Positions 29,515 through 42,833 of a DNA stretch of 44,309 nt are shown piece after piece. The notes under the pieces are model-generated. The model had not been told where the DNA came from. It searched no databases and saw only the letters and a program-made list of their open reading frames with translations. The translations under genes and the position numbers were made by a program. How positions within the stretch are numbered: the stretch's first letter is position 1; each line of letters opens with the position of its first letter. This DNA comes from a virus, in IMG/VR virus record IMGVR_UViG_3300047320_000350, positions 1 through 44,309 of that record; one strand, given 5' to 3'.

Positions 29515-30159
29515 TTACTTGAGCAGATCTTCGATACTGACCGCTCCAAACGGATTTGGAATTGCTCGACGAGCAACGAAAAATCCGACGACCCGGCATT
29601 TCGGCGACTTTTCAAGGATCATATCCTTGACAGCTCTGTAATGGGAGCCTGTCGTCAGCAGGTCGTCCACCACACCAACACTACCTGGCAAGTCCACAAG
29701 ACAGTCCGTATTGAACCTATAGTTTTCCCTCAACTCTTCGGGTTTCTTTCTCTGGCCCTCGTGAAACCCATCCGTTGAATTGATTTGCTCGATCAGTTCT
29801 CGGACGTTGGGTTGGTTGGGCTTTCTGATCCGGCTGCAAATTTGGAGTATCCGATCGTCATGCATTGGATCGGACTTAATTTTTGAGGGAGGAATTGGAA
29901 TGAGAATCGAATTGCCGAGCCATTGCGCGTTGATGGTATGGGAGAAGGCTTTAGCGCAACTATCGATCGCGCCGGCTTTATAATGATAACCTCCGTCGCC
30001 TCTTTTCTTTTTCAGGTTATGAATCAGCTGATTGGTGTCGCCGCCACGCCAGCCAACACCGGCCGTGTACTCGTACAGAAAATAGCATTCGTCTTCTGGC
30101 GTGAGGTAGAAGTGATCGTGCCGATTTGTATCATCAATCGTTTGAAGACGTAGCGTCAC
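29515..30159 (-). CDS. Phosphoribosyltransferase-like protein (partner of DprA-like)
   Basis: From GTG 30159, which has GGAG eight bases upstream and overlaps the DprA-like stop by 26 bases, the protein has 214 residues (an upstream GTG at 30204 is also in frame). It carries the PRPP-binding signature VVDDLLTTG (residues 163 to 171) after a strand-like ILIPIPPSK (85 to 93), as in type I phosphoribosyltransferases and ComF-like proteins. The N-terminal 80 residues (HFYLTPEDECYFLYEY) are specific to this group. The long overlap implies strictly coupled expression. The substrate base is unknown. I recall similar pairs being listed as candidate phage-defence systems. Confidence 0.75.
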   Translation of the reverse strand: MTLRLQTIDDTNRHDHFYLTPEDECYFLYEYTAGVGWRGGDTNQLIHNLKKKRGDGGYHYKAGAIDSCAKAFSHTINAQWLGNSILIPIPPSKIKSDPMHDDRILQICSRIRKPNQPNVRELIEQINSTDGFHEGQRKKPEELRENYRFNTDCLVDLPGSVGVVDDLLTTGSHYRAVKDMILEKSPKCRVVGFFVARRAIPNPFGAVSIEDLLK

Positions 30160-31045
30160 CGAGCGCGCTCCAGATATCTTGCGGCGCGCGAACTCGAATA
30201 GCACCCTTCTTCTCGTAAGCAGCTGGCCATGAAATGTCTTTGCGGTCGAAACACGAATCGAGAATGAAAAGCTTTCTGCCTTGCTGCAGCGCTGCCCGCG
30301 CTTGGGTTAAGGTTCCACTTGTGTCACTCGCTTCAATAATAATGGTGGCTTCAGTGAGAGCGCTCATTGTCACGTTTCGCTCTGGAAAGAAGAGCTTGTT
30401 CTGGGGCACGTGCTGGCTGGCATAGCGCAGGACTGGGACTTGCGAAATGAGCAAAAATTCCTCTGCGATTTGTCTTTGCAAATCCATATTTTCTTTTGGG
30501 TAATAGACCCCAATCGGAGTGCCGATAACCGCAACTGTCCGGCCTCCAGCTTCAATCGCCGCTGTATGAGCCGCCGCGTCTATGCCAGCAGCAAGACCGG
30601 AAACAACAGTGAACCCCTTCTCGACCAAGGCACGCGCAATCCTTCCCGCGCGACGCTTTCCTTCATCGCTAGCATTTCTGCTGCCGACAACAGCGACGCT
30701 GCGAGTTTCGGCCAACTCCCACGTGCCCTGAAAGTAGAGCATTTCAACTGGATATCGGGCGTCGCGAAGCTTAGCCGGGTAATTGCCAGTCAGGTTGAGT
30801 CGAGTGCCGAACCGAGAAACGCCCGCCTTCGAGAGCTTCGTGAGCGTCTCAGCAGCTCGAGCCTCTGCAATCGGTCGCGAGACGAAATCAGATGGCATCG
30901 CCATCGGATCAGCCGCGAATTTTTCGGCGATCGTTTTAAAAGTGGCGCCCTTTTCGAGCCATAAAGCCTCATACGCCCCTAACTCTAAACGGGGCGAGAC
31001 CGCAGAGACCGCGGGACCTGTACTCATTCGGGCAAGTAAACTCAT
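30134..31045 (-). CDS. DprA/Smf-like Rossmann protein
   Basis: Counted from ATG 31045 (AGGG eight bases upstream), the protein has 303 residues; ATG 31099 in the same frame is the alternative. Residues about 90 to 265 carry the DNA-processing protein A core: VAVVGSRNAS (117 to 126), SGLAAGID (149 to 156), GGRTVAVIG, YYPKEN, FPERN (220 to 224) and DTSGTLTQARAAL. The N-terminal 90 residues differ from chromosomal DprA, and the C-terminal winged helix is missing. Chromosomal DprA binds ssDNA and loads RecA; here a role in sensing nucleic acid or nucleotide is more likely. Its promoter carries an SOS box. Confidence 0.82.
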   Translation of the reverse strand: MSLLARMSTGPAVSAVSPRLELGAYEALWLEKGATFKTIAEKFAADPMAMPSDFVSRPIAEARAAETLTKLSKAGVSRFGTRLNLTGNYPAKLRDARYPVEMLYFQGTWELAETRSVAVVGSRNASDEGKRRAGRIARALVEKGFTVVSGLAAGIDAAAHTAAIEAGGRTVAVIGTPIGVYYPKENMDLQRQIAEEFLLISQVPVLRYASQHVPQNKLFFPERNVTMSALTEATIIIEASDTSGTLTQARAALQQGRKLFILDSCFDRKDISWPAAYEKKGAIRVRAPQDIWSALGDATSSND

Positions 31046-31158
31046 GGGAAAAACCCTATCTGCGTGCTTCGAGTCCGTCGAATCGAAGCGTCGAGTCATC
31101 ACCAGCTTTTCTCACCAACTCCTATCCTAGGCTTTTGGCTCGCAGGTGGCGGAAGACG

Positions 31159-31187
31159 ACAATAGAACAAATAGAGAACATTGTAAA
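31159..31187 (-). promoter_or_regulatory. SOS (LexA)-type promoter of the DprA/PRTase cassette
   Basis: On the minus strand TTTACA (31187-31182) and TATTGT (31164-31159) are separated by 17 bases. The spacer contains GTTC-N7-GTTC (31179-31165), an exact match to the alphaproteobacterial LexA box. LexA bound here would block RNA polymerase, so DNA damage should switch on the cassette. A second promoter-like pair, TTGATT-N16-GATAAT, lies about 35 bases upstream. Confidence 0.7.
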
Positions 31188-31716: not shown

Positions 31717-32241
31717 CTATGCCGCCTGCAGGTTGGCTAAAGTCACCTTAGCGACCGTTCGCCCCATCATCGCCATTTCAAGCAACACTTCTGCCCGGTC
31801 ACCCTTCATGGACTTGATCCGGCCAATCAGCTCGGAAAATGGGCCCTTTGGGATCACCACCCTCTGACCGATTTCGAAAGCTGGCGGCCGATTGAACTGC
31901 CGGCAGCGCTCCATCTCAATGTCTGCTTCGGTCATCCTGATGAGATCGAATGCCGGATCCGGAAGAGACGCTGGCCGACCTTCGATCTGCAGGAAGTCGC
32001 GAATGCCCGGGATCGCCCGGATCGTCTCCCACGGTTCAGCGCCGATCTGCAGGTTGGCGAAGACGTAGCAGTTGAACATGGGCTTCGGCACGATGCGAAC
32101 AGCGCCGCGGCCTGCCCGCTGAGCCCGAGCGATCTTCGGGACGTACTGCTCGAAGTTGCGAGCCTTCAGACCGTCACCCGCCTTGAGCTCTTGCCCCGGC
32201 TCCGAAATCAGAATGTGCCAACGGTATAGCGCGTCATTCAC
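31717..32241 (-). CDS. NusG-like antitermination factor
   Basis: The 174-residue protein has an NGN-type N-terminal domain (YRWHILISEPGQELKAGDGL, then PMFNCYVFANL and IRAIPGIRDFL) and a C-terminal KOW motif (IGQRVVIPKGPFSELIGRIKSMKGDRAEVLLEM). This is the architecture of NusG and its specialised paralogues such as RfaH. A phage copy in the early operon probably lets RNA polymerase read through terminators into late genes. Its start overlaps the stop of the ribbon-helix-helix gene by four bases. A broken copy of its 3' end lies at 31239-31326. Confidence 0.85.
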   Translation of the reverse strand: MNDALYRWHILISEPGQELKAGDGLKARNFEQYVPKIARAQRAGRGAVRIVPKPMFNCYVFANLQIGAEPWETIRAIPGIRDFLQIEGRPASLPDPAFDLIRMTEADIEMERCRQFNRPPAFEIGQRVVIPKGPFSELIGRIKSMKGDRAEVLLEMAMMGRTVAKVTLANLQAA

Positions 32242-33627: not shown

Positions 33628-34369
33628 AGCCGTCACTCGCTTGTTGATTACCGTTTGCGATTTCCGCGAAGCCGTTCGTCTCTCGGGAAGCGAACGCAGG
33701 AGGCCCGGCGCCACCGCGGATAACTGCGCCGATGTACTCAGAGGGGCTTTGCTTCGTTGACGCCTGCTCGATCGCAGCTCGAGCCAGTGCAACGTTGCCG
33801 CCCTTAGCGTGCACGAGTTTGACGATCACGCCACCGGCGCTCTTGCCGAGAACCTGCTTTCCACGATCGAATAATTCCTTTTCGGGATCAGACGACGCCA
33901 CCGGCGTCCGTTCCGTAGGAACGGAATCTTCTTTGGTGGTTGTAGATGTGTTGAATTTTGCTGCACCACTGGTTGAACCTGTGCTTACAGCATCCGTTGA
34001 CGCTTGCCTGCGTTCTGCTTGTAGCTTTGCTTCTTTTGCTTGTTTTCGCGCCAAAGCGGAGGCTCTCCCGCCCTTTTGGCCTGCTTGCGACTTCTTCTCG
34101 ATCTTCTCATCCGTCAACGCTAGTTCAGCGTCGATGCGCGGATGCTTCCACCCTTGCTTGAACAGACGTTGAAGCACTGGTGCAGCACTCGTCCATTCCT
34201 CCGGACTCATCCGGGCGATGCGCATCAGTTGGACTTCGTCGTCGGGCAAGCCGTCTTTCTGCCAATACTGCATGATCAGCAGTAGGTACGCACCGTGCTC
34301 CAGAGTACTGAGATGCTGGGTGTCGCCGAGGTAATCCGCGATGTAGAGGGGCATCCATGGACGGCTCAT
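33536..34369 (-). CDS. DUF1376-type replication protein
   Basis: The 277-residue protein starts MSRPWMPLYIADYLGDTQHL and continues LEHGAYLLLIMQYW, the hallmark of DUF1376, a winged-helix domain at the N-terminus of phage and prophage replication initiators. A basic, low-complexity linker (about 105 to 155) and a C-terminal domain follow. Its start overlaps the stop of the GIY-YIG gene (TAATG). It likely binds the phage origin or recruits the host replisome. Confidence 0.8.
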   Translation of the reverse strand: MSRPWMPLYIADYLGDTQHLSTLEHGAYLLLIMQYWQKDGLPDDEVQLMRIARMSPEEWTSAAPVLQRLFKQGWKHPRIDAELALTDEKIEKKSQAGQKGGRASALARKQAKEAKLQAERRQASTDAVSTGSTSGAAKFNTSTTTKEDSVPTERTPVASSDPEKELFDRGKQVLGKSAGGVIVKLVHAKGGNVALARAAIEQASTKQSPSEYIGAVIRGGAGPPAFASRETNGFAEIANGNQQASDGYGSDHRIIDVTPNQSGGSHGPDRRKEFASR

Positions 34370-34974
34370 TAGCGTCGTCCTCCTGCGCGCATACCGGCGT
34401 GCTTGGCGATCACCTTCTCTGCGGCCAGAGAGTCTGCCCACCAGCGCGGTTTTTTATCCCCCGCCATGAGAGCTTTGAGGTAGTCCCAGCCGTCTTCACT
34501 TTGGATCAATTTCTGAAGCTCTTCGGCCGTATAGCTAGAGTGGTTTGATAGCCGCTTTTTGGCCACGCGTTCGCTGATGCCCGAAATCTCGCTAAGCAAT
34601 TCAAATGGCCTCGTCCCGTAGGGACGCTTCTGCTTTATGACGTTCGTGATTGCTACCTGCGCCGCCGACGCTGCGGCGGTTGGCTTGCGTTCTTTCTCCA
34701 CATGCCCGATAGCGGATGGACCCCGGGCGACAAGGTCATCGATCGCCGTCCGCACAGGGACGCAGTCGTGAAACCACTCACCCTTTACCCTGTGAGGTAG
34801 AAGATGCTTTTGGACCGCGCGTTCAAGCTGATACGTTCCGCTGATGGTGGCGATCAACGTCAGCTTGCTAGGCGCCGAGGTGGCTAATTGGTACATCCGG
34901 TTTTTCACGTCGGTCGAGAAGCCGATCTTGATGCGCCCCGCGCACTCAATGAAATAGACGTTACCGCCCTTCAT
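34369..34974 (-). CDS. GIY-YIG nuclease domain fused to an HTH-like domain
   Basis: Residues 1 to about 85 of this 201-residue protein form a GIY-YIG domain of the T5orf172/MUG113 type: NVYFIECAGRIKIGFSTDVKNRM, then TYQLERAVQKHL and GEWFH. Residues about 120 to 185 form a second domain (PFELLSEISGISERVAKKRLS to YTAEELQKLIQSEDGWDYLKALM). The neighbouring upstream gene encodes the same second domain without the nuclease. The pair overlap by four bases. The HTH-like part may direct the nuclease to particular sequences; this is inference. Confidence 0.78.
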   Translation of the reverse strand: MKGGNVYFIECAGRIKIGFSTDVKNRMYQLATSAPSKLTLIATISGTYQLERAVQKHLLPHRVKGEWFHDCVPVRTAIDDLVARGPSAIGHVEKERKPTAAASAAQVAITNVIKQKRPYGTRPFELLSEISGISERVAKKRLSNHSSYTAEELQKLIQSEDGWDYLKALMAGDKKPRWWADSLAAEKVIAKHAGMRAGGRR

Positions 34975-36619: not shown

Positions 36620-37387
36620 ATGACCGAAAAGAAACGCGCCAATGAACTTGCGCTGGACTACATCCAGTCCGAGTTGACACGAACAGGAGCCGCCAAAGGC
36701 GACTTGGCAAAAGCCATGAATATTAGCGCTTCCGCGCTATCGAAGATCTTGACGAAGCAGCGCCAAATTGACCTTGGCGAATTGTTCCTGGCTCAGAGGT
36801 TCTTCCAGTCGCCTCCGGAAATCGAGATTCAGCTCGTCCAATCATTATTCCCGGATAGAAAGATCAAACTGAATCGAGAAACGGACCGACCGCGATTGAC
36901 CGATCAGCAGGCGCTGGCCGCAGCGCGGCGCCTAAGCACCATGGAACTGGACGAGACGGGACCCGAGGTGAAGGGGATACGAAACCCGAGAGACGTGGAC
37001 ATCTTTCACACGACCCCGGGTAACGATAAATCTTTCATCGTCGGCCCCCAAGTCATGGGCCTTAAACTTCGCCCCCCGACGATCCTGCTCGCTAGGAAAA
37101 TTGCAGCAATTTACATGGTGGGGGCATCAGCTAGCCCAAGATATAACGACGGTGAGCTCATCATATTCGACGTTGAGCGATCACCCGCGATAGCGGAATA
37201 CGTCATCATCGAGGGACACCCGGTTAATGCTAGCGGCATGCGATCAGCTTACGTGGGCCGCTTGGTAGAGCGGAATGGCACAGACGTCTCCATCGACTTG
37301 ATTTCCTCAAGGATGACTTTGCACTTTCCTACCGGCGAATTTTCCGCAATCCGTAGGATAATACCTCTAGACGAACTTTTGCCGTGA
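36620..37387 (+). CDS. CI-like prophage repressor, S24-type C-terminus
   Basis: The 255-residue protein has an N-terminal helix-turn-helix (TGAAKGDLAKAMNISASALSKIL, residues 22 to 44) and a C-terminal LexA/CI-type domain with MVGASASPRYNDGELIIFD (Ser170 at the catalytic position). The lysine normally found in the VKRL element appears replaced: AYVGRLVER has Gly213 there. If so, RecA-stimulated self-cleavage may not occur, and the antirepressor encoded next door could be the inducing factor. Operators of the motif TTTTC-N7-GAAA flank the gene on both sides. Confidence 0.82.
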   Translation: MTEKKRANELALDYIQSELTRTGAAKGDLAKAMNISASALSKILTKQRQIDLGELFLAQRFFQSPPEIEIQLVQSLFPDRKIKLNRETDRPRLTDQQALAAARRLSTMELDETGPEVKGIRNPRDVDIFHTTPGNDKSFIVGPQVMGLKLRPPTILLARKIAAIYMVGASASPRYNDGELIIFDVERSPAIAEYVIIEGHPVNASGMRSAYVGRLVERNGTDVSIDLISSRMTLHFPTGEFSAIRRIIPLDELLP

Positions 37388-37389
37388 TT

Positions 37390-37441
37390 TTTTCTAATAT
37401 CGAAATTTATTTCTTGCGTAATTTTCGAATATGGAAATAAT
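37390..37441 (+). promoter_or_regulatory. Operators O4-O5 and promoter of the antirepressor operon
   Basis: Two perfect TTTTC-N7-GAAA sites lie at 37390-37405 and 37422-37437, 32 bases apart. The second covers the spacer of a promoter-like pair, TTGCGT (37414-37419) and AATAAT (37436-37441), and overlaps the -10 box. Repressor bound here would silence the rightward operon beginning with the antirepressor. Confidence 0.7.
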
Positions 37442-37465
37442 GGACTTCCGAATCTTCGGGAGTCC
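37442..37465 (+). promoter_or_regulatory. Hairpin enclosing the antirepressor ribosome binding site
   Basis: GGACTTCCG pairs with CGGGAGTCC (one G-U) across a six-base loop; the pairing can extend to eleven bases per arm. The ribosome binding site GGGAG lies in the 3' arm, six bases before the ATG at 37469. The hairpin lacks a T run, so it is not a terminator. It should reduce translation unless opened by temperature, RNA or a protein. Confidence 0.6.
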
Positions 37466-37468
37466 ACC

Positions 37469-38209
37469 ATGTCGTCTTCATTTCCAGCAGTCATTGTCCG
37501 CCAGATCGGTGCCAGCACCGCACAGGCGGTTGATGCGCGCGATTTACACGCAGCCCTAGGCAACGGCGATCACTTCGCCACATGGATGCGAGATCGCATC
37601 CGCCAATTCGATTTCACCCAAGGCTCTGATTTCGTTTCTTATTCGGAAAAGACGGAAAAAGGTGCGCCTCGCACCGAGTACGCCGTATCCCTCGACATGG
37701 CGAAAGAACTCGCCATGGTCGAGCGATCCCCGAAGGGCAAAGAAGTCCGTCAATACTTCATCGAATGCGAGCGTCGCGCCAAAGGCACGGTGCCGGCCCT
37801 CCTACCCGACTTCTCGAACCCAGCCATCGCCGCCCGCGCATGGGCTGAGCAGTACGAACGCCGCGATATCGCTGAGCGGCAGGTTGCTGTCCTCGAGCCC
37901 AAGGCCGTCGCGCTGGACCGCCTGACCGCCGCCGATGAAATGATCCTGATCAGCGATGCGGCGAAGCGGTTGGATAAACCGATCAAGGATGTGTTCGCCT
38001 GGCTTCGTGCCAACAAATGGATTTTCCGCCGTGCCGGTTCGAAGCGCGACATCGGATACGCCGACAAGCTTCGTGCCGGTCTGCTCGTCCATAAATATCA
38101 CACGGTGCCGCAGGACGACGGCCCGGAAGTTCTCAAGGAACAGGTCCATCTGACGCCGAAGGGCCTTGCGCATCTTGCCGGCGTGTTCGGCCGCGAGGTC
38201 AGCCGATGA
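37469..38209 (+). CDS. Antirepressor, AntA/AntB plus KilAC domains
   Basis: The 246-residue protein has an N-terminal AntA-type domain (QAVDARDLHAALGNGDHFATWMRDRI, then YAVSLDMAKELAMVERSPKGKEVRQYFIECER) and a C-terminal KilAC/ANT domain from about 140 (MILISDAAKRLDKPIKDVFAWLRANKWIFRR, then HLTPKGLAHLAGVF). Such proteins inactivate prophage repressors. It is the first gene of the rightward operon and is controlled by two repressor operators and a leader hairpin. It is coupled to the next gene by an ATGA overlap. Confidence 0.88.
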   Translation: MSSSFPAVIVRQIGASTAQAVDARDLHAALGNGDHFATWMRDRIRQFDFTQGSDFVSYSEKTEKGAPRTEYAVSLDMAKELAMVERSPKGKEVRQYFIECERRAKGTVPALLPDFSNPAIAARAWAEQYERRDIAERQVAVLEPKAVALDRLTAADEMILISDAAKRLDKPIKDVFAWLRANKWIFRRAGSKRDIGYADKLRAGLLVHKYHTVPQDDGPEVLKEQVHLTPKGLAHLAGVFGREVSR

Positions 38210-38394
38210 ACGCGCAGATCGTCAAACCCCTCGCCCGAGTCCTAGCAGCCTCATCCTGCGACCTTGGTGACGAACGCGAAGTAATGCGTGCTCTCCGCGA
38301 CGCTGGCATTCCAGAAGGCAGCATCATTGTACTGATGGATGACGCAATCGAGCAGGCCCGCGTTGTCCGCGCGGCAGAAGGCGCGCTCACATGA
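38206..38394 (+). CDS. Small acidic protein coupled to antirepressor
   Basis: The 62-residue protein begins at an ATG overlapping the antirepressor stop and ends at a TGA overlapping the start of a 31-residue gene. Its sequence (DLGDEREVMRALRDAGIPEGSIIVLMDDAIEQARV) suggests two helices separated by a turn. No family was recognised. The chain of four-base overlaps implies co-expression with the antirepressor. Confidence 0.55.
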   Translation: MNAQIVKPLARVLAASSCDLGDEREVMRALRDAGIPEGSIIVLMDDAIEQARVVRAAEGALT

Positions 38395-38486
38395 ACGTCG
38401 TTTCAGGGCTCCTGACCGACCTAATCGCCATCAGCCTCTTCATTTCAACCATCGCAATTTGGTCCGCAATCGCCTGCGGAGCGTGA
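38391..38486 (+). CDS. 31-residue single-helix membrane protein
   Basis: The ATG overlaps the previous stop (ATGA), and the frame runs 31 codons to TGA at 38484. Almost the whole protein is one hydrophobic helix (LLTDLIAISLFISTIAIWSAIA). The next gene starts 26 bases later. Its tight coupling argues that it is translated. It may be a small regulator or membrane-active peptide; its function is unknown. Confidence 0.45.
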   Translation: MNVVSGLLTDLIAISLFISTIAIWSAIACGA

Positions 38487-38512
38487 TCGGCGCGCCCGAT
38501 CGAGGATCGAAC

Positions 38513-39271
38513 ATGCTTTCAGTGCAGTCAGAGACCAGCAGACGTATCCGAAATCAGCGTGGCACAGCAGCGGCGAAGGAGCCGACTAATCCGCCCGTGA
38601 TCACACTACCGGTGAAGAAGCCGCCGCATCCGATCTTCGGAAACGTCCCGGAAGACTTTTCCCTCTCGGAGCAACCGCTCATCATGCTGTCACACTGGCA
38701 CCGGAAAGCATTGGCTGCGATCGAGGCGCTTCCTGAAGATATGACGGACGCAGAACTTGACGATGCTTGCGGTCTTGCGCGCGATATCTACAGCGCCGTC
38801 CTCTCTCGATGCGCCACGTGCGCCAGCGATGTTGTTCTGCAGATGGAATGTGTCGTTGCAACTATGGGACACGAGAAGAGCGACATTATCGAGGAATACA
38901 TTGACGGCGCGTACTTCAAACGGTTGACGGCTGCAATCAAAGCAGTGACAGCACCTAAACGCGCGAAGAAGAAGGTCGGCAAGCTTGCACGAGGCCTCAA
39001 GTTAACTCGTGCCGGCCTGCTCTTTAGGTATCAGGCGTTCCTGATCCAAGAACTTCACACTCTAAGCCTGGAACTGTATGGCGACGCTCGATATGCGATC
39101 CAGTACCTGCCCTTCGACGATGCTGTGCAGAATCGTTGCGCGAGTGCGCCGGGACGCTATCCGTTCCTCGATCCAAGGCCCCTCACCTCCCGAGCAAAAT
39201 CGGTACTCAAAAGCTTGAAGATCAACACAGAGCGCGCGGACGATCGCGCTGTCCGAATTTCGCGTGGTTGA
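38513..39271 (+). CDS. Hypothetical early protein, helical (252 aa)
   Basis: The start at ATG 38513 has GAGGA six bases upstream, the best ribosome binding site in this operon. The protein has a proline-rich, basic N-terminal part (about 1 to 55), then a helical region (LSHWHRKALAAIEALPEDMTDAELDDACGLARDIYSAVLS) and a basic segment (APKRAKKKVGKLARGLKL). No motif gives a function. It lies between the antirepressor operon and a frameshifted gene. Confidence 0.6.
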   Translation: MLSVQSETSRRIRNQRGTAAAKEPTNPPVITLPVKKPPHPIFGNVPEDFSLSEQPLIMLSHWHRKALAAIEALPEDMTDAELDDACGLARDIYSAVLSRCATCASDVVLQMECVVATMGHEKSDIIEEYIDGAYFKRLTAAIKAVTAPKRAKKKVGKLARGLKLTRAGLLFRYQAFLIQELHTLSLELYGDARYAIQYLPFDDAVQNRCASAPGRYPFLDPRPLTSRAKSVLKSLKINTERADDRAVRISRG

Positions 39272-39282
39272 GGAGAGCAACG

Positions 39283-40039
39283 ATGCTGCAGCTACCGTCT
39301 TCCGGCTCCCGCCGCCGCTTCACAAAAGCTCAGATCACCGAGATCGCTCGCGGAGCAAAGATCCGCGTCCGCAGGCCGAAAGCTGATCCCGTTATCGCGG
39401 CGGTGACGAAGTACGGCGCTCTTGTTGAGACCTTGACAGAAATTTCAGCGCGAACTGCAGAGGCAAAGGAACGCCTACCCGACGAATATCAGGGCTGGTT
39501 CTTCATGCCGGTGCCGGAAAATCTCAGGGACATCATCGGCGGCAATCAGTTCAAGTTTCATTTCTCATCTTTGTCGCATGTCCGTTCGACGTTCAGCGAC
39601 CGCCGCCGTCGCCATCGTGCTTTGATCAAAGATACGAGAGCGATCATCCGCAGAGCCTCGGAACCGCAGATCGCCCGCGAGTACCAATTACTACTTGTAT
39701 CATACAAGCACGAGCTCGACCTTCTGGTTACACTTCAGCCGGCATTCGAGAAAGCATTCGTTCGAGAGCAATCACATTTCAACCGGCTTCAAAAAAAAGG
39801 CTGGGCTCACCGACGCGCGGACTGCGAGCCGAGCGGCCATTCTCAAGCTCGCCCGACTGTCTAAGAAGATCGGAAAGGCGAAACCGCTGACCACCGATGG
39901 CGCGCTGGCAATGCTTAAGTACGCCGAGATCCGACTTCAGGGCGATCGCCTATACCATGACGAGGATTGCATCGCCGCCATCATAAAACGCGCTCATGCG
40001 TTTCTTCGCTCCCAATTCCGAAACCGGACTGCATCGTGA
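39283..40039 (+). pseudogene. Early hypothetical gene interrupted by a frameshift at an A8 run
   Basis: The frame from ATG 39283 (GGAG seven bases upstream) stays plausible to about residue 170 (FEKAFVREQSHFNRLQ), then ends in an Arg/Pro-rich nonsense tail at 39864. In the other frame past the A8 run (39791-39798) a sensible protein continues: KKAGLTDARTASRAAILKLARL to CIAAIIKRAHAFLRSQF, ending at 40039. Removing one A would join them into about 250 residues. It is thus a one-base insertion, a sequencing error, or a gene using slippage on the A run. The product is unknown. Confidence 0.6.
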
Positions 40040-41379: not shown

Positions 41380-41787
41380 ATGGATACAGCACGTTCACCC
41401 ATTTCCCAGGATGCGCCTTTACGTCTTGCCGAGGCGGTCAAGATCGCGTTTCCTATGGGTGGAATGACCTTGGCCGGCCTTCGGCGGGAGATTGCACGGG
41501 GCCGGCTAACGGTCGAAGTTATCGCCGGCAAGCATTTCACAACGCTGGCTCACATTGAGGAGATGCGGGAGTTATGCCGCGTAAAAGCAAAGGCGCCCGA
41601 CTTCACCTCAAGGGCGAACGACGAGACAAATCTGGAAACGTCACCCACCGAGCTACCTGGATCATCCGGGACGGCGCTCGGGATGTCTTCACAGGTTGCA
41701 CTGAGGATGAGATTGCAGAAGCAGAGCAAGCTCTCAGCACCTATATCGCATCGAAGCACAAGCCGAAGCGAAAAGCTCAAGACATAG
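41380..41787 (+). CDS. Probable excisionase / recombination directionality factor
   Basis: The 135-residue protein has a DNA-binding core at about residues 15 to 70 (RLAEAVKIAFPMGGMTLAGLRREIARGRLTVEVIAGKHFTTLAHIEEMRELCR), similar to MerR/AlpA-type excisionases. It is encoded just before the integrase and overlaps it by 214 bases in another frame. The C-terminal half, within the overlap, looks unstructured and Ser-rich. The predicted role is to bend attachment-site DNA and favour excision. Confidence 0.65.
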   Translation: MDTARSPISQDAPLRLAEAVKIAFPMGGMTLAGLRREIARGRLTVEVIAGKHFTTLAHIEEMRELCRVKAKAPDFTSRANDETNLETSPTELPGSSGTALGMSSQVALRMRLQKQSKLSAPISHRSTSRSEKLKT

Positions 41788-42833
41788 AAATCATTCCAGT
41801 CGGGGATGTGCTCGCGATCTATTTAGACGCGACGTTAGAAACTCTGCGCGATCGCTTCAAGGTCACCGAAGAAACTGAAGACGGCATTGCCGCCATTCGG
41901 AAATTCAAAGCTCGCATCGGTCGCCTCAATGACTATTGGGGTGCGAAGATGCTGTCGGACGTCGACGGTGACGAATGCCGATCATACAGGACGAAACGGG
42001 GAAACCGAGGCGGCGCGCGCCGCGACCTCGAAGACCTACGATCGGCTATCGGTCATCACTCCGCCGAGGGCTACCACCGCGGCGTTGTAAAAGTGACGCT
42101 TCCGCCCAAAGGCCAAGCCCGCGACCGATGGTTGACCCGCGACGAGGCTGCCAAACTGATTTGGACGTGCTGGCGGCACCGCGAAGTGCAGACTGTTCAT
42201 CGCGGCCCGATGAAGGGGCAGAAGATCGAAACGGATAAGCGACCACTTCGTCACCTCGCTCGCTTCATTCTGATAGGCGCTTACACGGGCACGCGGGCGG
42301 CTGCGATAGCAGCCTCGTCCCCTATTCCGGCAATTGGTCGATCCTACGTGGACCTTGAACGAGGCCGCTTTTATCGCCGGTCCCAAGGATCTGCTATCAC
42401 CAACAAGCGACAGCCAACCGTACCTCTGCCTCTCCGTCTGTTAGTTCACCTAAGGCGCTGGCATCGTATCGAGCCCGACGCAAAGCACTTCGTCGGATTC
42501 AACGGAAAGCCGGTGTCTTCGGTGAAGACCGCGTTCAAAACTGCGGTCCGTCTTTCGAAGCTTTCGACGGCCGAAGGAAACATTTCACCGCACACGCTGC
42601 GCCACACTGCAGCGACCTGGCTGATGCAGGCCGGCACAGATCCTTGGCAGGCCGCTGGCTATCTCGGAATGTCGTTGGAGGTCCTGCTCAACACTTACGG
42701 CCATCATCACCCAGATCACATGGCGGATGCCGTGGAGAAGATTGGCAAGCGCCCCGGCAAGCGAGAACGTAAGAAGGACGTATCTGGGGCGGTAACTGGT
42801 GCGGTAGTGAAATTTCCGAAGAAGAAAATGTAA
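41574..42833 (+). CDS. Tyrosine-recombinase integrase
   Basis: The 419-residue protein has an N-terminal arm-type and core-binding region (about 1 to 180) and a catalytic domain with Arg241 (TGTRAAAI), Lys278 (ITNKRQP), His340 and Arg343 (HTLRHTA) and nucleophile Tyr375 (NTYGHHHP). That set is complete, so the enzyme should be active. The C-terminus is basic (GKRPGKRERKKD). It ends 17 bases from the 3' end of a tRNA gene, its presumed attachment site. Confidence 0.93.
   Translation: MPRKSKGARLHLKGERRDKSGNVTHRATWIIRDGARDVFTGCTEDEIAEAEQALSTYIASKHKPKRKAQDIEIIPVGDVLAIYLDATLETLRDRFKVTEETEDGIAAIRKFKARIGRLNDYWGAKMLSDVDGDECRSYRTKRGNRGGARRDLEDLRSAIGHHSAEGYHRGVVKVTLPPKGQARDRWLTRDEAAKLIWTCWRHREVQTVHRGPMKGQKIETDKRPLRHLARFILIGAYTGTRAAAIAASSPIPAIGRSYVDLERGRFYRRSQGSAITNKRQPTVPLPLRLLVHLRRWHRIEPDAKHFVGFNGKPVSSVKTAFKTAVRLSKLSTAEGNISPHTLRHTAATWLMQAGTDPWQAAGYLGMSLEVLLNTYGHHHPDHMADAVEKIGKRPGKRERKKDVSGAVTGAVVKFPKKKM

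What the first reader, a model, noticed from the sequence alone, without database searches (positions are those of the whole stretch)
29515..31187. SOS-controlled DprA-like / phosphoribosyltransferase cassette: candidate prophage defence or conflict system
A DprA/Smf-like Rossmann protein (GSRNAS, SGLAAGID, FPERN motifs; no winged helix; novel 90-residue N-terminus) is followed, with a 26-base coding overlap, by a protein with the PRPP-loop signature VVDDLLTTG. The pair stands alone between early and packaging genes with its own promoter, as expected of cargo, not of a competence gene. From memory (not checked) DprA-like/PRTase pairs have been noted among prophage-borne anti-phage candidates; no mechanism is known to me. 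A plausible logic is nucleotide or DNA sensing by the Rossmann protein with PRPP-dependent modification by its partner.
Basis: partly seen in the sequence, partly recalled or inferred. Interest (0 to 1): 0.88.

Follow-up and report, generated by a model that had tools for sequence, protein, structure and literature searches.

The report
SOS-controlled ShosTA defence cassette in prophage
A prophage carries a small version of the known ShosTA toxin-antitoxin phage-defence pair, and pairs of this kind have repeatedly been placed behind DNA-damage (SOS) switches, which would let the defence turn on when the cell's DNA is hurt.

Summary
The two genes are real and are a known system. They match PADLOC ShosA (1.2e-96) and ShosT (2.8e-40), an experimentally tested toxin-antitoxin anti-phage pair with solved structures from E. 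coli. The window's ShosT is the short form: it keeps the PRPP loop but lacks the N-terminal HAD-like ~150 residues of the solved 432-aa ShosT.

What appears new is the control. A perfect alphaproteobacterial LexA box (GTTC-N7-GTTC, 31179-31165) lies in the 17-bp spacer of a promoter-like site in front of shosA and is the only such box in the 44-kb record. It lies within 250 bp upstream in 26 of 38 alphaproteobacterial shosA-shosT pairs (0.7% per locus in shuffles), in both orientations, while altered-spacing controls give 0. It is absent from 46 dprA-like control loci. In other viral ShosTA loci the E. coli-type box CTGT-N8-ACAG takes its place (9 of 62; 0.18 expected). I found no report of SOS control of ShosTA in the open-access papers I could search.

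Best explanation: LexA-gated abortive defence. Binding, induction, toxicity and defence of this copy are inferred, not tested.

The parts
31165..31179 (-). LexA box GTTCTCTATTTGTTC (alphaproteobacterial SOS operator)
   Evidence: Only GTTC-N7-GTTC in the window; fits the Caulobacter SOS box in PMC9578287 and, with its flank, the stricter (T/A)TGTTC(N6)TGTTC of PMC13384398; best-conserved stretch of the upstream region in the Bradyrhizobium clade
31159..31187 (-). Promoter-like site TTTACA-17-TATTGT whose spacer holds the LexA box
   Evidence: Consensus scan, 9 of 12; same TTTACA-box arrangement in L004, L005, L006 and L010. A second promoter-like site lies at 31222-31195
30134..31045 (-). shosA: DprA-like antitoxin, 303 aa, probable start ATG 31045 (the frame is open to GTG 31102)
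   Evidence: PADLOC ShosA 1.2e-96; Pfam DNA_processg_A 2.4e-55; fold matches DprA 3uqz and ShosA 8zva
29515..30204 (-). shosT: short PRTase toxin, 229 aa from GTG 30204 or 214 aa from GTG 30159; overlaps shosA
   Evidence: PADLOC ShosT 2.8e-40; all 26 aligned members match ShosT; fold matches ComF 7p0h and ShosT 8zvb, 8zvc, 8zvd
29647..29673 (-). PRPP-loop motif VVDDLLTTG of ShosT (residues 178-186)
   Evidence: D180, D181, T184 and G186 invariant in 26 sequences

Best explanation
This is a prophage-borne ShosTA toxin-antitoxin module of the short-ShosT type, an operon (shosA, then overlapping shosT) with its own promoter, whose spacer holds a LexA operator. While the host is undamaged, LexA keeps the operon low (inferred). 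DNA damage, including damage caused by an invading phage, leads to LexA cleavage and raises both proteins (inferred from the operator). By homology, ShosT is a PRPP-using toxin that upsets purine nucleotides and harms the genome, and ShosA is a DNA-binding antitoxin that offsets it through recombination; infection tips the balance to the toxin and aborts phage growth. Because the related ShosT is reported to act through DNA damage, a LexA-controlled copy would feed back on its own induction. Shown here: identity, gene order, fold prediction, operator and its recurrence. Taken from literature on long-form E. coli relatives: toxin, antitoxin and defence activity. Inferred: LexA binding, induction, feedback, and toxicity of the short ShosT.
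For: Identity. Pairing and gene order in relatives. Operator and promoter placement. Recurrence in 26 of 38 alphaproteobacterial pairs, and 8 of 16 in evenly drawn genome samples, against 0.7% per locus in shuffles. Altered-spacing controls 0 of 49. None of 46 dprA-like control loci has it. lexA itself carries the box in 26 of 29 alphaproteobacterial genomes. E. coli-type box in 9 of 62 viral ShosTA loci (0.18 expected). Defence and mechanism of relatives: PMC9122126, PMC12593503. SOS-controlled TA precedent higBA in Caulobacter: PMC13384398.
Against: No binding, expression or phage data. 12 of 38 alphaproteobacterial pairs lack an exact box (two of these have one mismatch at the same place), and most viral loci (45 of 62) have neither box. 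The short ShosT lacks the N-terminal part of the tested ShosT, so its toxicity cannot be assumed. A convincing -35/-10 around the box is seen in only about half of the loci that have it. The host of the window is known only from its bioA flank.
Confidence: 0.62

Rival explanations
1. SOS control serves the prophage, not the cell. ShosTA is raised when the prophage itself is induced, to keep rival phages or satellites out during its own growth, or as a timed lysogenic-conversion gene.
For: The window is a prophage with integrase, repressor-like and Ant antirepressor genes. LexA boxes recur in other viral ShosTA loci.
Against: Many boxed pairs were found in bacterial genome contigs, where I found no shared phage neighbours with the window except integrase-type genes in L010; prophage status of those loci was not otherwise tested. 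In the window no other gene has the box.
Confidence: 0.2
2. The pair is mainly an SOS repair unit. ShosA is the working part (DNA-binding, recombination-aiding, raised on damage) and ShosT an accessory nucleotide enzyme; phage defence is secondary.
For: ShosA comes first in the operon and has a DprA fold; relatives' ShosA is said to bind DNA and promote recombination; SOS genes are often repair genes.
Against: ShosT is kept next to ShosA in nearly all relatives with its PRPP motif intact; two pairs of relatives were shown or named as TA/defence systems. ShosA loci without ShosT (L036, L096, L097, and L008 with a remnant) have no box in the 250 bp upstream, but these are few.
Confidence: 0.12
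3. Ordinary competence-type dprA/comF genes captured by a phage, with a chance LexA-like match.
For: The folds are DprA and ComF-like, and one GTTC-N7-GTTC match per 44 kb is expected by chance.
Against: NCBIfam dprA is missed (160.6 against a cut-off of 191.15 bits); ShosA-model scores are far above those of chromosomal DprA in the same genome sets; the box recurs at promoter distance in many lineages while spacing controls do not.
Confidence: 0.03

Closest known systems
ShosTA of E. coli APEC O1 (PDB 8zva, 8zvb, 8zvc, 8zvd; ShosA also 9vzo)
   Same: DprA-like ShosA plus PRTase ShosT in one operon, antitoxin gene first; folds match
   Different: Its ShosT is 432 aa with an extra N-terminal HAD-like part; the window's is 229 aa. 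Only 24% (ShosA) and 12% (ShosT) identity in the fold alignments.
DprA/PRTase pair of P2-like coliphages (PMC9122126; L109, L143)
   Same: Prophage-borne cargo, DprA-like gene followed directly by the PRTase gene; protects against T7 and lambda
   Different: Long second protein (424 aa); no LexA box found upstream in L143. That L109/L143 is the same pair as the one tested in the paper was not checked.
Short ShosTA of Burkholderia phage Mana (NC_055863) and Pseudomonas phage Riah (OR351070)
   Same: Same short two-gene form, annotated DprA plus phosphoribosyltransferase. Mana has TACTGTATGCATAAACAGTA 99 bases upstream
   Different: About 54% ShosA and 32% ShosT identity. Mana's box is the CTGT-N8-ACAG type; Riah has no LexA box near shosA.
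higBA of Caulobacter crescentus
   Same: A toxin-antitoxin operon of an alphaproteobacterium whose promoter is held by LexA (PMC13384398)
   Different: Unrelated proteins; HigB is a ribosome-dependent RNase; that promoter is also bound by its own antitoxin HigA
PsyrTA and RqlHI
   Same: DprA-like antitoxin partner; PADLOC PsyrA model hits ShosA at 5.6e-25; named together with shosTA in PMC9122126
   Different: Much weaker match than ShosA. RqlH is RecQ-like (title of PMC4670107); the window's toxin is PRTase only

Membership tests
ShosTA | ShosA profile match (DprA-like antitoxin) | tested here: met
   PDLC03961 1.2e-96 over residues 38-315; genomes' ordinary DprA score at about 1e-40 to 1e-70
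ShosTA | ShosT profile match with PRPP loop | tested here: met
   PDLC03962 2.8e-40; VVDDLLTTG with four invariant residues
ShosTA | The two genes adjacent in one operon | tested here: met
   Overlapping frames in the window; same order in nearly all relatives
ShosTA | Long ShosT with HAD-like N-terminal part, as in the solved E. coli protein | tested here: not met
   229 aa, no HAD match; solved ShosT 432 aa. PADLOC has a separate short model, so this marks a subtype, not exclusion
ShosTA | Toxin neutralised by antitoxin; phage defence | not testable with these tools
   Needs expression and plaque assays
LexA (SOS) regulon | LexA box of the host's type in the promoter | tested here: met
   31165-31179 within TTTACA-17-TATTGT; recurrence in relatives
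LexA (SOS) regulon | LexA binding and induction by DNA damage | not testable with these tools
   Needs gel shift and mitomycin C expression data
Competence DprA | NCBIfam dprA equivalog score over its cut-off | tested here: not met
   TIGR00732 160.6 bits, cut-off 191.15
PsyrTA | PsyrA profile as best antitoxin match and a PsyrT match next to it | tested here: not met
   PsyrA 5.6e-25, far below ShosA; no PsyrT match

The most novel reading that the evidence does not exclude
Short ShosTA is a recurrent member of the SOS regulon of prophages and other elements. LexA control was gained several times, with whichever operator the host's LexA reads, because damage by the toxin and release of LexA together make a self-amplifying abortive-infection switch.
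Probability: 0.3. Interest if true: 0.72.

Novelty: new variant of a known kind. Interest (0 to 1): 0.55.

Why it matters
It would tie a DNA-damaging anti-phage toxin-antitoxin system directly to the cell's DNA-damage response and give a simple prediction: the operon stays low until LexA is cleaved. Two operator types and two orientations suggest that damage induction was gained more than once, so it is probably part of how many of these systems work and not an accident of one prophage. It also raises a clear biochemical question: whether a PRTase-only ShosT, without the HAD-like part of the solved protein, is still a toxin.

Tried and rejected
Competence dprA/comF: rejected. Chance box: rejected by recurrence and altered-spacing controls. 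LexA box in front of the P2-type long ShosTA of E. coli: looked for, none. Gammaproteobacterial genome pairs L028, L062, L063, L064: no box of either type. Sequence search of the PDB with short ShosT: no meaningful hit, so a fold search was used. Differing LexA motif as the reason for missing boxes: G023, G374, G094 and Pseudomonas G027 lack the exact box at lexA as well as at shosA, while 18 of 26 genomes with it at lexA have it at shosA (p = 0.018); this is a small test, the G094 lexA locus is incomplete, the G027 pair is not alphaproteobacterial, and most missing boxes stay unexplained. Promoter hexamers around the box: clear in roughly half of the boxed loci, unconvincing in the rest. Full text of Pu et al. 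2025: not held.

Full report
What is there. On the minus strand a DprA/Smf-like frame (30134-31102, 322 aa) is followed by an overlapping PRTase-like frame (29515-30204, 229 aa). Homology to relatives begins at ATG 31045, so the real DprA-like protein is probably 303 aa. The window is a 44,309-base virus record. A tyrosine integrase, a repressor-like protein, an Ant antirepressor and a bioA-like aminotransferase at one end (identified from its sequence; Pfam says aminotransferase class III) mark it as a prophage with host DNA. That end gene is 88% identical to one genome in the family sampled around Bradyrhizobium. The cassette lies between early genes (NusG-like 31717-32241) and the terminase genes and is somewhat A+T-richer than most of the neighbourhood.

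What it is. PADLOC names the pair ShosA (1.2e-96) and ShosT (2.8e-40). Predicted structures (mean pLDDT 86 and 85) match DprA and ShosA 8zva for the first protein, and ComF and ShosT 8zvb/8zvc/8zvd for the second; the ShosT fold match is modest (TM-score up to 0.48). A DprA/PRTase pair of P2-like phages protects E. coli against T7 and lambda (PMC9122126). A review reports that ShosT is a phosphoribosyltransferase and pyrophosphatase that upsets purine pools and causes DNA duplications, filamentation and death, that ShosA binds DNA and counteracts it, and that T7 Gp0.7 is a trigger (PMC12593503 citing Pu et al. 2025; the primary text was not held). The solved ShosT is 432 aa, and relatives of that long form have weak HAD matches in their N-terminal part. 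The window's ShosT has the PRTase part only. All 26 aligned short members match the ShosT model and keep D180, D181, T184 and G186.

The operator. GTTCTCTATTTGTTC at 31179-31165 is the only GTTC-N7-GTTC in the record. It lies in the spacer of TTTACA-17-TATTGT facing shosA, and the next gene upstream runs the same way, so there is no divergent gene for it to serve. The motif is the SOS box of Caulobacter (PMC9578287); with its flank it fits the stricter (T/A)TGTTC(N6)TGTTC (PMC13384398). About two matches per window are expected by chance, so recurrence was the test. Of 38 alphaproteobacterial shosA-shosT pairs with enough upstream DNA (window included), 26 have an exact box within 250 bp, and two more (L094, L103) have one mismatch at a like position. 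Shuffled upstream regions have one in 0.7%. In the evenly drawn genome samples alone it is 8 of 16, counted. The pairs are not all independent: some, such as L004/L005 and L022/L023, are nearly identical.

Two designs. In the Bradyrhizobium type the box reads GTTC-N7-GTTC after TTTACA. In the sphingomonad type it reads GAAC-N7-GAAC after TTGACA or TTGACT, with CATATT-like -10. Other boxes have no convincing hexamers around them. Boxed rows fall on several branches of the ShosA tree. In the Bradyrhizobium clade the box is the best-conserved 15-base stretch of an otherwise drifting upstream region. Controls: altered spacings 0 of 49 genome loci; 46 dprA-like loci none; lexA has the box in 26 of 29 alphaproteobacterial genomes.

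Across lineages. Of 62 further viral loci with distinct upstream sequence (55 with ShosT next door), 8 carry the alpha box (0.38 expected) and 9 carry CTGT-N8-ACAG (0.18 expected); no altered spacing of the latter occurs. Examples are TACTGTATGCATAAACAGTA in Burkholderia phage Mana, TACTGTATGTATACACAGTA in L145 and TACTGTATATTTTCACAGTA in L156 and L176, close to the E. coli SOS box TACTG(TA)5CAGTA of PMC9578287. The hosts of most viral contigs are unknown to me, so the fit of operator to host is seen only for the named genomes and Mana. L179 and L180 are near-duplicates. The loci also overlap in part with each other; identical upstream regions were counted once.

How it probably works. LexA holds the operon down; damage or infection releases it and raises antitoxin and toxin together; infection tips the balance to ShosT, which aborts phage growth. 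Because ShosT is reported to act through DNA damage, LexA control would make a positive feedback loop. Identity and operator are shown. LexA binding, induction, toxicity of the short form, defence and feedback are inferred.

Novelty. The family is known, and the short form has its own PADLOC model and annotated phage members. Recurrent SOS control of ShosTA was not found in ten searches of a partial open-access library, which is weak evidence of absence. A tandem short-plus-long ShosTA arrangement behind one LexA box in sphingomonad-type loci is a further variant.

Noticed in passing
L013:6001-9818; same layout in L012, L015, L016, L018, L019, L020, L021 and the L103/L106 genome: Short shosA-shosT is followed directly by a second DprA-like gene and a long (about 415 aa) ShosT with a weak HAD match: a tandem short-plus-long ShosTA arrangement behind one LexA box. 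In L013, L015 and L019 the stop and start codons overlap or nearly touch. L103 itself has a one-mismatch box.
   Followed up: partly
window 36620-39864 (+) and 41574-42833 (+): Lysogeny region: HTH repressor-like protein, AntA/KilAC antirepressor and tyrosine integrase. No GTTC-N7-GTTC box lies there, so shosA holds the only one in the record.
   Followed up: partly
window 31717-32241 (-): NusG-like protein (Pfam NusG 1.3e-13), just upstream of the cassette on the same strand; a possible phage antiterminator.
   Followed up: no
window 34369-34974 (-): T5orf172/MUG113 domain protein in the early region.
   Followed up: no
L008:6001-7019: Bradyrhizobium shosA with only the last 27 residues of ShosT left nearby and no LexA box in the 250 bp upstream: possibly a decaying cassette that lost toxin and operator.
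   Followed up: partly
H63-H66 (Leptolyngbya boryana plasmids): ShosA relatives at 47.5% identity to the Mana protein on cyanobacterial plasmids, outside the Proteobacteria.
   Followed up: no
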